Of a DNA stretch of 64,000 nt, positions 19,190 through 27,365 are shown one piece after another. The notes beneath the pieces are model-generated. The model was given only the letters and a program-made list of their open reading frames with translations. It was not told the DNA's origin and did not search any database. How positions within the stretch are numbered: position 1 is the stretch's first letter; every line of letters begins with the position of its first letter. Position numbers and translations under genes: made by a program. Origin of the DNA: Gemmataceae bacterium (GTDB taxonomy: Bacteria; Planctomycetota; Planctomycetia; Gemmatales; Gemmataceae); contig JAIEMG010000205.1 in the NCBI GenBank assembly GCA_019752375.1, positions 1 to 64,000 of the forward strand. Direction: 5' to 3'.

Positions 19190-22100
19190 TCACTTGCCGC
19201 CAACAATGCGCACCCGCGCCGGCGAGTTCGGCACGTCGTCCAGCTCCAAACGCAGTCCGTCGCGGCGTTTCTCCAGGTCCAGTGCCAGCGTCAGCGTGTG
19301 GACGCCCGGCTTCAGATCGAGTGTCATCGCCTCGCCGATCTCTAGCGGCACGCCGTCCAGCCAGGCGGTCAAGCCCGTCATCGAATTGAGCAGCAGCTTC
19401 ACCTTGCCACCCGTCGTGACGTCGAGTTGACAGCGCAGGAAGCCATGCGCTGCCGTGTCGTTGCGGTATTTCACCGCCGGAACCGCGTCCAAGGGCAACG
19501 CGCCCGAAACGTGGCTGTATGCCGATCCCCAGATCAGAACAGGATCATTGCTGGCCGCGGATCCAATTTGGGTCGAGCGCAGCAGTTCCTTGCCTTTGTC
19601 CGTCGGCTCCAGCGCCTGCCAGCGCCGCACCACGCGCGCCTGGCTGACGGCATAGGGGCCGACCTTGCCCAGCTCCGACAAGAAGCGGACCAGGTCCACC
19701 AGCTCCGCGCGGGTGAGTGGATCAGACAGGCCCTCGGGCATCAGGGATGGGCCATTGGCGCGCTCGTCGATCTCCTTGATGCCAATCGTGATCTCGCGAT
19801 CCTCGGCATCGCGGAGCACCAGCTCGGTCTTGCTCTCGCGCACCTTGATGCCGGTGTGGATCTTGCCCGCCGTCGTCGTCACGATCAGCGAGTGATAGCC
19901 CTCCTTGAGGACCTTGTTCGGCAGCAGGATTGATTCGATCAGGTAGTCGATCTGGGCGCTGGCGCCGATGCTGGTCAGGTCCGGGCCAACCTGGCCGCCG
20001 GCCCCGGCAATCGCGTGGCACTTCAAGCACACCTGATCCTTGCGACGGAACACCCCCTCGCCGCGGGCCGCGTTGCCGGTCTTCTGCACCTCGGCAACGA
20101 GCTGTGCCAGCTCCTCCGCGGTCAGTTCGCGCTTGAGGTTCGTCAGGTTGCCGGCCTTGGTCAAGGCTTCGATCAGCGCCGGCGAATCGCGGCCGGTCGC
20201 GCGGACGGCACGGACTCCGACCTTGGCCACGTCGGCCGGCAGCTTCTTGTCCGCCAGCGCCTTGGCCAGCAGTGCCACACCATTCTTGCGATCGATGAAC
20301 GCGGTGAATACGTCGCTCGCATCACCTTCACCGCCCGCCAGTACTTCGACCGCAAGCGCGGCGGCGCGTTCGGTGTCCAGCGTCGACAATGCGATGACAG
20401 CCATCCGCCGCAGCGCAAGCGGATGCTCCTTGGCAGCCAGGTCTGCGAGCGTCGCTCGGTCCGTCATTGCCGCCAGGCCGTCAATAGCCGCCTGGCGAAC
20501 GACCACACTGGATTCCGCAGCCTTGGCAAAGGCGAGCAACTCAGGCTGCAGCTTTTGCAGTTTCCAGGAGCCGGCCAGCCGGAGTGCCGACGCGCGCACC
20601 GTTTCGTTCTCGGATTTGAGCAGCGGCGCAAGTCGTTCACGATCCCCGGTCGGCACGACGCCCTTGCCCGCGGCCTGCTCGAGGGCCACCAGCAGCTTGA
20701 CCTGCCGAGCAGCCGGATTGCCCTCCCTGGCCAGCGCCTTGTCGAACACCAAGGTCAGTTCCGGAGGCCCGCCCAGCGCCGCAATCAAGAGCAGGGCGCT
20801 CTCTTCCCGTTCGGGAACGATTTTGCCGGATTTCAGAAGCGCCACCAGCGGCGCGACGCCCTCCTTTGCACCGATCGCTTGGAGTGCGACGACGAGATGC
20901 TGGGGATTGCCGCCGAAATCGAGCGTACCCTTCTGCAAGGCAGGCAACCAGTCCGGCGCCAGCTCACGTAACGTCAGGTACAGCGCATAGTCGATAAAGC
21001 GATCGGTCGGTCGATCGAGTGCCTGCATGGCGATTTCCGCGGAGCGCGGGCCGGGAATCTGGCCTAGTGCCCGCACGGCTTCCAGGCGCACTTCGGGGTG
21101 ATCGTCGGCGATGCGGACGGCCAGCAACTCCACCGGATTGGAGAGTCGGGTGTGCCACAACGCCAGCGCCCGCACCGCGGCGGCGCGGGCATGGTGGTCC
21201 TTCGCTTGCAGGAGCCTGGCGAGCAGCTTCGGCTCCACCACATCAAGAGATTGAAAGGTCCACAGCGCTTCGAGCAAGTGGTGCTCAAACTGCGGGTCGG
21301 CCGCATCGAGCTTCTGCACCCACGCGGTCAGGTCGGGCAGCACGGCCTTGGCGCCGCGCTCTTTCAAGACGCGCTTGGCGAAGTGGCGAGTCCAATCTTC
21401 AGGCGCCTTGAGGGCTTCAAGGAGTTCTGGCGTCTTGGCATCGACGAGTTTCGGACGCTCGACCAAGGGCCGGCCCTTGGCGGTGACGCGCCAGATGCGG
21501 CCGTGCGTCAGGTCGCGGCGCGGGTCGCGGAAATCGACTTCGCCGTGTTGGATGATTGGGTTGTACCAGTCCGCAATGTAAATCGCGCCGTCCGGCCCCA
21601 TCTTGACGTCGATCGGGCGGAATGCGGCATGGTTCGTCTTGATGAGGTCAGCTTTCTGCTGCGAGGCGAAGCCGGAGCCGTCCTCGCGGACGACAAAGCG
21701 GCAGACGCGATGGGCGCGGAAGTCGTTGGCGATCATGTTGCCGCGCCACTCTTCGGGCAGGTGCCGGCCGCTCAGGATCTCCAGGCCGCAGTACTTCGGA
21801 CTGCCTGGATTCAGGCCTGGTAACAGTTTGCTTCCTCCCGTCGCCGCGGCGTAGGACGCACCGGGAACGACCAGGTGAATGCCGCCGTCGCCCGCGCCGT
21901 CGGTGGCGAACGACTGGCCCCAGCGGTCGAAGTGATGGCCCCAGGTGTTCCAGAAGCCCCGGCAAAAGACTTCGAGCTTGAGCGAATCCGGCCGCAGCTG
22001 CCAGATGCCGCCCGCATTGAGCCGGCGCGGCCCGTGCGGCGTTTCCACATGGCTATGGATGTAGACGGACTGGTTGAAATAGAGCATCCCCTCTGGGCCC

Positions 22101-22615
22101 CAGCGGAACGTGTGAATGATGTGGTGCGTGTCCTCGGTGCCGAAGCCAGAAAGGACGACGCGCTTCTTGCGGGCCTTGCCCTTCGTATCGGGATCGCTGA
22201 AGTGCAGGATGTCGGTACTGTCGGCGACGTAGGCGCCGCCGTCGCCGGGCTCGACGCCGGTCGGGATGAGCAAACCGTCGGCGAAGATCGTCACCTTGTC
22301 GGCCTTGCCCATGCCCTTGGTGTCTTCAAGGATCAGGACCTTGTCGTTCGCCTTCTGACCCGGCTTGATCTGGGGATACACCTCGCTGCAGGCGACCCAG
22401 AGCCGGCCTGCGGCATCGAAGTTCATCTGGATCGGCTTGGCAAGCAGCGGGTCGGCCGCGAAGAGGTTGACCTCGAAGCCGTCGGCGACGATGAACGACT
22501 TGCGTTCCAGTTCCGGATCGGGGTCCGGCGGCTGCGCATTCTTCTGGGCAGAGGCCGGACCGCTCAGGAACAAGCATGCACAAAGGATGGCCGGGTATCG
22601 CAGAGGTTGGTTCAT
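19190..22615 (-). CDS. PVC-type heme-binding CxxCH / membrane-bound dehydrogenase-domain protein with HEAT repeats
   Basis: 1141 aa. The ATG at 22,615 overlaps the upstream stop as ATGA, so translation is coupled to the DUF1569 gene. A signal peptide ends near ASA (about residue 23). Next comes a beta-propeller 'dehydrogenase' domain (about 35-400) with ADGFEVNLFAADPLL and YIADWYNPIIQHG, then HEAT repeats (about 430-820). A cytochrome c site CLKCH lies near residue 860, followed by a C-terminal beta domain. Such proteins are abundant in Planctomycetota and Verrucomicrobiota and are thought to be periplasmic redox or sugar-oxidising proteins; the substrate is unknown. Confidence 0.92.
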   Translation of the reverse strand: MNQPLRYPAILCACLFLSGPASAQKNAQPPDPDPELERKSFIVADGFEVNLFAADPLLAKPIQMNFDAAGRLWVACSEVYPQIKPGQKANDKVLILEDTKGMGKADKVTIFADGLLIPTGVEPGDGGAYVADSTDILHFSDPDTKGKARKKRVVLSGFGTEDTHHIIHTFRWGPEGMLYFNQSVYIHSHVETPHGPRRLNAGGIWQLRPDSLKLEVFCRGFWNTWGHHFDRWGQSFATDGAGDGGIHLVVPGASYAAATGGSKLLPGLNPGSPKYCGLEILSGRHLPEEWRGNMIANDFRAHRVCRFVVREDGSGFASQQKADLIKTNHAAFRPIDVKMGPDGAIYIADWYNPIIQHGEVDFRDPRRDLTHGRIWRVTAKGRPLVERPKLVDAKTPELLEALKAPEDWTRHFAKRVLKERGAKAVLPDLTAWVQKLDAADPQFEHHLLEALWTFQSLDVVEPKLLARLLQAKDHHARAAAVRALALWHTRLSNPVELLAVRIADDHPEVRLEAVRALGQIPGPRSAEIAMQALDRPTDRFIDYALYLTLRELAPDWLPALQKGTLDFGGNPQHLVVALQAIGAKEGVAPLVALLKSGKIVPEREESALLLIAALGGPPELTLVFDKALAREGNPAARQVKLLVALEQAAGKGVVPTGDRERLAPLLKSENETVRASALRLAGSWKLQKLQPELLAFAKAAESSVVVRQAAIDGLAAMTDRATLADLAAKEHPLALRRMAVIALSTLDTERAAALAVEVLAGGEGDASDVFTAFIDRKNGVALLAKALADKKLPADVAKVGVRAVRATGRDSPALIEALTKAGNLTNLKRELTAEELAQLVAEVQKTGNAARGEGVFRRKDQVCLKCHAIAGAGGQVGPDLTSIGASAQIDYLIESILLPNKVLKEGYHSLIVTTTAGKIHTGIKVRESKTELVLRDAEDREITIGIKEIDERANGPSLMPEGLSDPLTRAELVDLVRFLSELGKVGPYAVSQARVVRRWQALEPTDKGKELLRSTQIGSAASNDPVLIWGSAYSHVSGALPLDAVPAVKYRNDTAAHGFLRCQLDVTTGGKVKLLLNSMTGLTAWLDGVPLEIGEAMTLDLKPGVHTLTLALDLEKRRDGLRLELDDVPNSPARVRIVGGK

Positions 22616-23118
22616 GGCTTCTCGTGGTGAATGAAGTTCAGGTGAACGGCTGCGTGTCGCAAATGGATTTCCATCCACTGCGCATTGGATAACATTCCCA
22701 GCAGCGGGCTCTTCGCCGTCATCGGCTCGCCCTGCTGGATGCGCTGAATCTGGCTTCGCACCAGGGCTGCGGCGTCGCTCAGGTTCGCGTCATTGCCGGG
22801 CAACATCGGGGCTGCACTCGGCGGCAGTTGAAAGCCCGGCTTGAACATCAGGTTCAGGGTCTTGTTCCACATCACGCGCTTCAGGACACCGGCGATCATT
22901 CGCACCGGCAGTGGAGCGGCGAAGGGAAAACCGTCGAACGAAAATTGCATCGTCTTGCCAATGTGATCGAGGACCTGAGCGGCGGTCCAGTTGCCCGTCG
23001 TGCGCAGCGTACCGGCTTCGTCGGCGCGGACCACGCGCTCGACTTCCTCGCCGAGCTCGGCGTAGGAGGCAAACCGCACGTTGCGGCGATCGGTGACCTT
23101 GTCGGTCGCAATAGGCAT
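22612..23118 (-). CDS. DUF1569 family protein (DinB-like helical bundle)
   Basis: 168 aa. The pattern FASYAELGEEVERV, then GNWTAAQVLDHIGKTMQFS, and the late WMEIHLRHAAVHLNFI matches DUF1569, a branch of the DinB/YfiT four-helix bundle superfamily. His residues in the two late helices and in DHIG may bind a metal. The family has no firm function. The stop codon overlaps the start of the CxxCH protein gene, which makes a two-gene leftward operon. Confidence 0.82.
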   Translation of the reverse strand: MPIATDKVTDRRNVRFASYAELGEEVERVVRADEAGTLRTTGNWTAAQVLDHIGKTMQFSFDGFPFAAPLPVRMIAGVLKRVMWNKTLNLMFKPGFQLPPSAAPMLPGNDANLSDAAALVRSQIQRIQQGEPMTAKSPLLGMLSNAQWMEIHLRHAAVHLNFIHHEKP

Positions 23119-25313: not shown

Positions 25314-25928
25314 ATGAAAGCACGTACTGCGATCATTGTCGCAGCCTCCATTGGATGCGTCCTCGCATTTGCCGCTACGTTCGCCGTGGTTTACAAACGG
25401 ACCGTCGATGCCCAAGTCGAAAGCTTGTCACAGATCAAGTACAGCGCAAGGCCTCTCGCCGGTGATTTGCCAGTAGAGATCGTCGGTCAGGGTTTCGAGT
25501 GGCGCGTCCGTTATCCCAGCAGCCGTCGCTTGCAAGGCGACGGAAAGTTGGCGGCGAACTTCGCTCAGGAAGCCAATGAGAGCCGGCAAGAGTCTGATGA
25601 CGTCCGTTGCGTAGATGAGCTGCACGTGTGGAAGAAAGCTAAGATCCATGTGCACCTGAAGTCAGGAGACGTGCCCCACACCTTCTCAGTGCCGGTGCTG
25701 CGATTGATGGAAACCGTCGCACCAGGCAAGGTCACGCTCGTCTGGTTTATAGCGGATAGAAGCAACGTCACCTGGGATCCCGAGGCTGACGACTGGACGC
25801 ATGAAGACTCGTGGGAGTTTAGGTGTGCGGAACACGGTCCCACAAAGATGAAGGGACAGCTGCTCGTTCACGAGACGAAAGACGACTTCCTCAAGTGGCT
25901 TCGACGAGCGGAAAAGAACCAGCCGTGA
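25314..25928 (+). CDS. COX2-like membrane-anchored cupredoxin with a blue-copper-type loop
   Basis: 204 aa. One transmembrane helix (about residues 6-26) anchors a cupredoxin domain. The order matches the cytochrome oxidase subunit II soluble domain: VHLKSGDVPHTFSVPVLRL with His122, PGKVTLVWFIAD, then the metal loop. CuA loops have two Cys, a His and a Met. Here the loop is C171-A-E-H174-x4-M179, the Cys-x2-His-x4-Met spacing of plastocyanin-like type 1 sites. A mononuclear blue copper centre is therefore likely, acting in electron transfer or copper handling. No other oxidase subunits are nearby. Confidence 0.75.
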   Translation: MKARTAIIVAASIGCVLAFAATFAVVYKRTVDAQVESLSQIKYSARPLAGDLPVEIVGQGFEWRVRYPSSRRLQGDGKLAANFAQEANESRQESDDVRCVDELHVWKKAKIHVHLKSGDVPHTFSVPVLRLMETVAPGKVTLVWFIADRSNVTWDPEADDWTHEDSWEFRCAEHGPTKMKGQLLVHETKDDFLKWLRRAEKNQP

Positions 25929-26033
25929 CCTAACGCTGCAATCGTCGCGTGGGAAGGTCAGCATGGTTGGGATGATTATCGGTTGCTTCACCACTTTGAC
26001 CCGTCCGAACCCTTGGACCCGTGTGCGGGTGTG

Positions 26034-26672
26034 ATGGTTCGGTCGCGTTATCGATGGAATCGAATGAACGAGCGCTCAATTCCGCCGTCTGAAGACTCTC
26101 GCACAGGGCGGTGGAGACACCTAACCGTGTCCGGGGCGGTCTGCTTGGCAATTGGCGTTTTCTTGGTTGGATGGTGGGATCCGTTGGGGTTTCGAGTAAC
26201 CGATTCGGAACAGGTCCCCGGTGATACCGAGGTACTGTCCGACCAAGCCGTTCGCGACCCAGACCCCAATGTGTTTCGCAGCAAGGGGACGATCACACTC
26301 CCTGATGGTGATCTGCTGGAGTTTCGGTATGGTCCAATCAACGATAGCGGGGTGGAGCTGCGACGAATCGCTCGCGTTGATGGGGCGGTCCGCTGGCACC
26401 AATCCACTGCCGCATTGGGCGTAGCCCATTCCAAGTACCATCACGAGGTCGTCGTGCATGTTGAGGGAGCGACCGTAAAGGTAACCAGTCGTGGATCAGC
26501 CGGTACATCCGTTGAACGGCTGGCCTTGAACTCTGGCAGAAGGCTTGCGCGGTCCGTTCGAATGGCAAGGTGGTATTGGGGGAGCGGACCTAACCAAAAC
26601 GCTGACACGACGGTCGCCCAGTTACGCTTCCGCAATGAGTTCGATTTAGGTGGCGCAAGCACCGAGCCATAA
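26034..26672 (+). CDS. Single-pass membrane protein of unknown function
   Basis: 212 aa from ATG 26,034; ATG 26,064 is equally possible. A hydrophobic helix (GAVCLAIGVFLVGW) follows a short N-terminal tail. The outer part is beta-rich and has no motif I recognise. It lies 105 bases after the COX2-like gene on the same strand, so the two may share a transcript. By eye it is more A+T-rich than the neighbouring housekeeping genes. Confidence 0.55.
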   Translation: MVRSRYRWNRMNERSIPPSEDSRTGRWRHLTVSGAVCLAIGVFLVGWWDPLGFRVTDSEQVPGDTEVLSDQAVRDPDPNVFRSKGTITLPDGDLLEFRYGPINDSGVELRRIARVDGAVRWHQSTAALGVAHSKYHHEVVVHVEGATVKVTSRGSAGTSVERLALNSGRRLARSVRMARWYWGSGPNQNADTTVAQLRFRNEFDLGGASTEP

Positions 26673-26834
26673 AGGTGTTTTGCCTTGAGCCAGCCGAGTA
26701 TTCGTTGGATACAAGGAAGTCTTCGATGAGCTACGGCGTCGAGTTCGATGAGCCCGATTACCACTTGCCCCGCCACGATGGCGCACCGGATAATGACGGG
26801 TAGACACAACTCCGCCGTGGGGGAGGCAGAAACC

Positions 26835-27365
26835 GTGACCGAAACGCCTTTGACCGCGATCCACCAGGGCATCGTGGACGTTTTCCGCCGGGCCATCCCG
26901 GCTGTCCACGCAGAGGGTGCGCCGCAAGAACTGTCTCGCGAAATGGCGACGTTGATCCCCACCATCATTCGCAACGCAGCCGGCGCACGCGACCTGTGGG
27001 AAGTCCTGTGGAAGGAATTCGAGGAAGGTCCTGCAGATGAGTCGGACTATCTCCGTCGCGGGAACGAACTTGCCGGCGTCTTGAACAGCTGGCACGGCGT
27101 CCTTCAGGACCTGCGCAGCACCTGTGACGACCTCGCATTGCGCGAGGTGCCAGTCCCGAACGCACCTGCACTGAGAGCTGCCCTTCAAGAGAACGAACAA
27201 CTTCGGGCACTTCTCAAGAACAATTGGCCGTGGCCGGGTCGCCAGGAACTAATTATCGACCCGAACATGGTTGAGGCGTCGAGAGCCGCCATCGAGCGGG
27301 GCGAATGCGACGACCTGGAGGACTTGATCCGTGGCCTACCGGATGAAAGTCGCGCCACAAGTTAG
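26835..27365 (+). CDS. Hypothetical helical protein, first of an overlapping pair
   Basis: 176 aa from GTG 26,835, preceded by GGGAGG at an 8-base spacing. Mostly helical, acidic, with EASRAAIERGECDDLEDLI near the end. It overlaps the next gene by 35 bases, an arrangement common for functional pairs including toxin-antitoxin loci. No known family is recognised. Confidence 0.6.
   Translation: MTETPLTAIHQGIVDVFRRAIPAVHAEGAPQELSREMATLIPTIIRNAAGARDLWEVLWKEFEEGPADESDYLRRGNELAGVLNSWHGVLQDLRSTCDDLALREVPVPNAPALRAALQENEQLRALLKNNWPWPGRQELIIDPNMVEASRAAIERGECDDLEDLIRGLPDESRATS

What the first reader, a model, noticed from the sequence alone, without database searches (positions are those of the whole stretch)
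25314..25928. COX2-like membrane cupredoxin with a plastocyanin-spaced copper loop
The domain has the order of the cytochrome oxidase subunit II cupredoxin, but its copper loop is Cys171-x2-His174-x4-Met179 with His122, the spacing of type 1 blue copper proteins. The CuA loop of oxidases needs two Cys, a His and a Met. No other oxidase subunit is encoded nearby. It may be a natural CuA-to-blue-copper conversion in a planctomycete.
Basis: partly seen in the sequence, partly recalled or inferred. Interest (0 to 1): 0.72.

Follow-up and report, generated by a model that had tools for sequence, protein, structure and literature searches.

The report
Oxidase-derived orphan cupredoxin lacking CuA
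One planctomycete carries a stray, fast-evolving copy of the copper-carrying subunit of its respiratory oxidase; it has lost the two-copper CuA site and the residues that work with the oxidase core, but keeps residues spaced like a one-copper blue protein, so it may be a natural conversion, although copper binding is unproven.

Summary
The ORF is real (25314-25928, +, 204 aa), and the loop is as described: C171-A-E-H174-G-P-T-K-M179, with H122 upstream. Sequence, predicted structure (pLDDT 89; best PDB match the CoxB periplasmic domain, Z 15.7) and a tree place it as a paralogue inside the COX2 clade of its own family, Gemmataceae. Its terminal branch is the longest of 81. Relative to 64 COX2 relatives it has a 3-residue deletion removing Leu-Cys-Gly, including the second CuA Cys. 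The invariant CuA His became Pro176, and His174 is new. It has also lost TM1, the TM2 Glu and Trp, and the Lys-Gln-Asp motif, while 19 of 21 other near-invariant positions survive. The contig has no COX1; the genome has separate COX2-COX1 pairs with normal CuA. A CuA oxidase role is therefore very unlikely. A mononuclear type 1 site is the best positive hypothesis. It rests on spacing alone: a compatible His would arise by chance in about 7-10% of such loops, and no orthologue exists to test conservation. The intact frame argues against a long-dead pseudogene, but low GC3 and weak codon-position contrast show relaxed constraint. Verdict: observation confirmed; CuA loss solid; blue-copper gain plausible and unproven.

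The parts
25314..25928 (+). COX2-derived cupredoxin ORF, 204 aa, one membrane helix plus periplasmic domain
25350..25442 (+). helix H13-43, overlapping the hydrophobic stretch of residues 7-25; corresponds to TM2 of COX2. TM1 is absent, and conserved TM2 residues are replaced (G11A, E16V, W19F, W38L)
   Evidence: DSSP of model, hydropathy, alignment A2
25677..25679 (+). H122 codon, upstream Cu-ligand His conserved in all 64 COX2 relatives compared
25707..25715 (+). residues 132-134 MET in place of the near-invariant COX2 KQD motif
25824..25850 (+). copper loop CAEHGPTKM (C171, E173, H174, M179); lacks the L-C-G of CuA, and the CuA His column is P176

Best explanation
It is a free-standing, membrane-anchored cupredoxin derived by duplication from a Gemmataceae cytochrome c oxidase subunit II. 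Shown: COX2 ancestry; loss of the second CuA Cys by an in-frame 3-residue deletion; loss of the CuA His; loss of TM1; loss of the TM2 and KQD residues conserved in oxidase subunits; retention of the cupredoxin core with H122, C171, E173 and M179; a new H174 at the plastocyanin spacing. Inferred: H122, C171 and H174 (equatorial) and M179 (axial) bind one copper ion in a type 1-like site, and the protein passes single electrons on the outer face of the membrane or in the periplasm, independently of an oxidase core.
For: COX2 profile and fold. Tree places it within the family's COX2 clade. Of 32 columns at least 90% conserved in 64 relatives, 13 are changed: four in TM2, three in KQD, L-C-G plus His of the CuA loop, and Q60 and N101. 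The other 19, in the cupredoxin core and including H122, C171, E173 and M179, are kept. An intact frame at 50% nucleotide divergence is not expected under pure drift: P of zero stops 0.0004 from the own-genome COX2, 0.05 if only a quarter of the divergence was unselected. Cys-His spacings of two to four residues are the norm in blue and red cupredoxins, and loop length is proposed to govern site geometry (PMC4059628).
Against: H174 is unique, so its conservation cannot be tested. A compatible His has about a 7-10% chance of arising at random. GC3 is 0.66 against about 0.80 in neighbouring genes, and position 2 against position 3 divergence is less contrasted than among real COX2 genes, so constraint is relaxed.
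Confidence: 0.45

Rival explanations
1. A COX2 paralogue under relaxed selection that no longer binds copper, either decaying slowly or kept for a structural role. H174 is a coincidence.
For: Terminal branch 2.04 against a median of 0.25; GC3 0.66; weak codon-position contrast; neighbours 26064-26669 and 26748-27362 also have low GC3 and no family match, and the first has no relative in the order; 7-10% chance of a compatible His.
Against: No stop or frameshift over 612 nt at about 50% nucleotide divergence; 19 of 21 core near-invariant columns kept, including three of the CuA ligands; confident model.
Confidence: 0.32
2. A copper protein with a non-blue site: a perturbed, red or open mononuclear site (using E173 or water, as in nitrosocyanin or the purple cupredoxin type), or a copper carrier or chaperone rather than an electron carrier.
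For: Nitrosocyanin is among the structural matches (rank 49); E173 is kept; mononuclear sites outside the classic blue class are known (PMC4059628; purple cupredoxin Nmar_1307 cited in PMC6790972).
Against: All four classic type 1 ligands are present at classic spacing; nothing marks a chaperone.
Confidence: 0.17
3. It is still an oxidase subunit II, working with a subunit I encoded elsewhere.
For: Passes the PF00116 gathering score; COX1 genes exist on other contigs.
Against: Second CuA Cys and CuA His gone; TM1 gone; TM2 Glu (aligned with what I take to be the K-channel entrance Glu, E101 of R. sphaeroides) is Val; KQD is MET; two other COX2 genes with intact CuA loops, one directly beside COX1.
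Confidence: 0.05

Closest known systems
Gemmataceae cytochrome c oxidase subunit II (own-genome copy, L002 = G000:C186)
   Same: same fold and domain order, TM2-cupredoxin layout, H-C-E-M positions; 45% identity in the local match, 37% over the alignment
   Different: L002 has TM1, CAEFCGTRHTAM with two Cys and the CuA His, and lies beside COX1
Plastocyanin / pseudoazurin type 1 copper proteins
   Same: upstream His, then C-x2-H-x4-M spacing (spacing of the known proteins from general knowledge)
   Different: not close in sequence; here the domain is a membrane-anchored COX2 derivative, and copper binding is untested
E. coli CyoA with engineered copper site (PDB 1cyx) and quinol oxidase subunit II
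   Same: COX2-fold domain without native CuA; structural match Z 14.6
   Different: CyoA remains a subunit of a quinol oxidase and its copper site in 1cyx is man-made; here the change is natural and the gene has no oxidase partner nearby
Nitrosocyanin and purple cupredoxin Nmar_1307
   Same: mononuclear copper proteins of cupredoxin fold; nitrosocyanin appears in the fold search
   Different: different ligand sets and organisms; no sequence link shown here

Membership tests
CuA-type cytochrome c oxidase subunit II | COX2 periplasmic domain by profile and fold | tested here: met
   PF00116 27.8 bits against a cut-off of 22; 4w9z Z 15.7
CuA-type cytochrome c oxidase subunit II | CuA loop C-x3-C-x3-H-x2-M | tested here: not met
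   CAEHGPTKM; Cys2 deleted, His column is Pro
CuA-type cytochrome c oxidase subunit II | CoxB equivalog score | tested here: not met
   45.3 bits against 147.7
CuA-type cytochrome c oxidase subunit II | conserved TM2 Glu/Trp and KQD residues | tested here: not met
   E16V, W19F, W38L, K132M, Q133E, D134T
CuA-type cytochrome c oxidase subunit II | encoded with subunit I | tested here: not met
   no COX1 on contig C5
Type 1 (blue) cupredoxin | cupredoxin fold | tested here: met
Type 1 (blue) cupredoxin | His + Cys-x(2-4)-His-x(2-4)-Met ligand set at the right places in sequence | tested here: met
   H122, C171, H174, M179
Type 1 (blue) cupredoxin | ligands conserved among orthologues | tested here: inconclusive
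   no orthologue found
Type 1 (blue) cupredoxin | mononuclear Cu with about 600 nm band and small EPR hyperfine splitting | not testable with these tools
   needs purified protein

The most novel reading that the evidence does not exclude
A natural, single-lineage conversion of a cytochrome oxidase CuA domain into a mononuclear blue copper electron carrier by an in-frame loop deletion plus a new His, together with release from the oxidase. It would be a natural counterpart of the loop and site engineering done between CuA and blue sites in the laboratory.
Probability: 0.35. Interest if true: 0.72.

Novelty: new variant of a known kind. Interest (0 to 1): 0.45.

Why it matters
CuA and blue copper sites sit on the same fold, and their evolutionary relation has mostly been probed by engineering. 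A young natural paralogue that lost CuA and shows a type-1-compatible loop would give a natural example of that step, testable in one expression experiment. If it proves copper-free, it is an ordinary relaxed paralogue.

Tried and rejected
1) First loop-pattern scan of the class used 9 instead of 10 free bases after GG, so it could not match the window's own loop; its 8 hits were discarded. Redone correctly: 7 matching genomes, of which only the window's is a COX2. I translated the other matched stretches by eye. Three read CxEH-...-MDGVM, unlike COX2. The CDEHHLKSMSGSLSV one (L183) was checked, and none of the ORFs of at least 80 aa listed in that locus is COX2. 2) Single-protein scans of genome contigs and viral contigs found no relative. 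3) I first took the F in GFEWR as loss of the electron-entry Trp; rejected, because Phe is the commoner residue there in relatives (52 of 64). 4) The 80 loci all have CuA, but the scan selected partly on the CuA loop, so this is not independent evidence; searches are. Many weaker hits were not fetched, so their loops are unread. 5) Sequencing error as the source of the loop: rejected, since the whole gene is diverged, not just the loop. Absence of plastocyanin among the listed structural rows is not counted against the fold.

Full report
What is there. The ORF at 25314-25928 (+) is open from ATG to TGA and encodes 204 residues: an N-terminal membrane helix, a cupredoxin-type domain and a C-terminal helix.

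What it comes from. Pfam COX2 matches above its curated cut-off, and CoxB matches at E 7e-12 but far below the equivalog score. AlphaFold2 on an alignment with 64 COX2 relatives gives mean pLDDT 89.4. The best solved matches are the CoxB periplasmic domain 4w9z (Z 15.7, rmsd 1.9, 120 residues) and other COX2 and CyoA chains. Because the alignment consisted of COX2 proteins, the model is partly guided towards that fold; pLDDT is lower over the copper loop (76). In the maximum-likelihood tree of 81 sequences the query joins a clade (support 100/99) made otherwise only of COX2 proteins of its own family, with the longest terminal branch of all (2.04 against a median of 0.25). The tree program warns that the place of so long a branch is unsure, and its exact place inside that clade is unresolved. 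The family is Gemmataceae: contigs of the same genomes bear that name (for example the 31,626-base contig of G452 is SHZY01000064.1).

What it has lost. All 84 other COX2 ORFs retrieved by the whole-genome searches carry C-x3-C-x3-H-x2-M; the query's two locus copies are the only exceptions. Against 64 relatives, 32 columns are at least 90% conserved and the query keeps 19. The 13 changes are G11, E16, W19 and W38 in the membrane helix; Q60; N101; K132-Q133-D134; and L, C, G and H of the CuA loop. The Cys is removed by a 3-residue deletion, and the CuA His column holds Pro176. TM1 is absent. The TM2 Glu aligns, by my reading of the motif, with the K-channel entrance Glu101 of R. sphaeroides COX II (role described in PMC10095113); this mapping was not verified in a structure. 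Together these point to a protein released from the oxidase core. The grouping of the lost columns was made after seeing them, so it is an interpretation, not a test. No COX1 lies on the contig, while the genome has other COX2 and COX1 genes on contigs C48 and C186, the C186 COX2 lying directly beside COX1.

What it may have gained. H174 stands where relatives have W, G, L, F, S or T. With H122, C171 and M179 it makes a complete type 1 ligand set at C-x2-H-x4-M, the plastocyanin and pseudoazurin spacing (spacing of those proteins from general knowledge). Blue and red cupredoxins usually have two to four residues between Cys and His, and loop length is proposed to set site geometry (PMC4059628). 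But a compatible His would turn up by chance at one of three positions in about 7-10% of such loops, so spacing alone is weak evidence. The Met and the first Cys could also simply be inherited and not yet lost.

Is it functional? Simulated unselected change of the own-genome COX2 to the same nucleotide divergence gives 7.5 stop codons on average and P(no stop) = 0.0004; for half and a quarter of the divergence, P = 0.006 and 0.05. The simulation ignores indels, uses a simple mutation model and treats the own-genome copy as the starting sequence, although the true ancestor lies between the two. So a long-dead pseudogene is unlikely, but recent relaxation is not excluded. GC3 is 0.66 against 0.79-0.82 in most neighbouring genes, and the divergence at codon positions 1, 2 and 3 (about 0.48, 0.48 and 0.64) is flatter than among functional COX2 pairs. 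Constraint is therefore weaker than in COX2.

How unique. No other COX2-like gene with this type of loop was found among 397 class genomes by pattern, nor in the fetched hits of 392 phylum and 102 order genomes. No other genome of the same genus turned up in the order search. Unfetched weak hits were not read.

Conclusion. The blue-copper conversion is the most attractive positive hypothesis, but I put it at a little under even odds, with a copper-free relaxed paralogue as the main rival.

Noticed in passing
window 25314-27365: Three consecutive + strand ORFs (25314, 26064, 26748) have lower GC3 (0.60-0.70) than neighbouring genes (about 0.80). The 26064-26669 ORF has no relative in 102 genomes of the order, and the last two have no Pfam match; possibly a lineage-specific insertion.
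   Followed up: partly
window 19190-22678 (-): 1162-aa DUF7133 plus HEAT-repeat protein with a weak c-type cytochrome match; a type common in planctomycetes from general knowledge.
   Followed up: no
G000:C38:2515-2862 (L184): The only Copper-bind (PF00127) domain match in the genome lies in an 1810-residue open frame.
   Followed up: no
alignment A2, column of query residue 61 (window 25494-25496): Many planctomycete COX2 with intact CuA have Phe where the classic GHQWYW motif has the electron-entry Trp (52 F, 12 W of 64).
   Followed up: no
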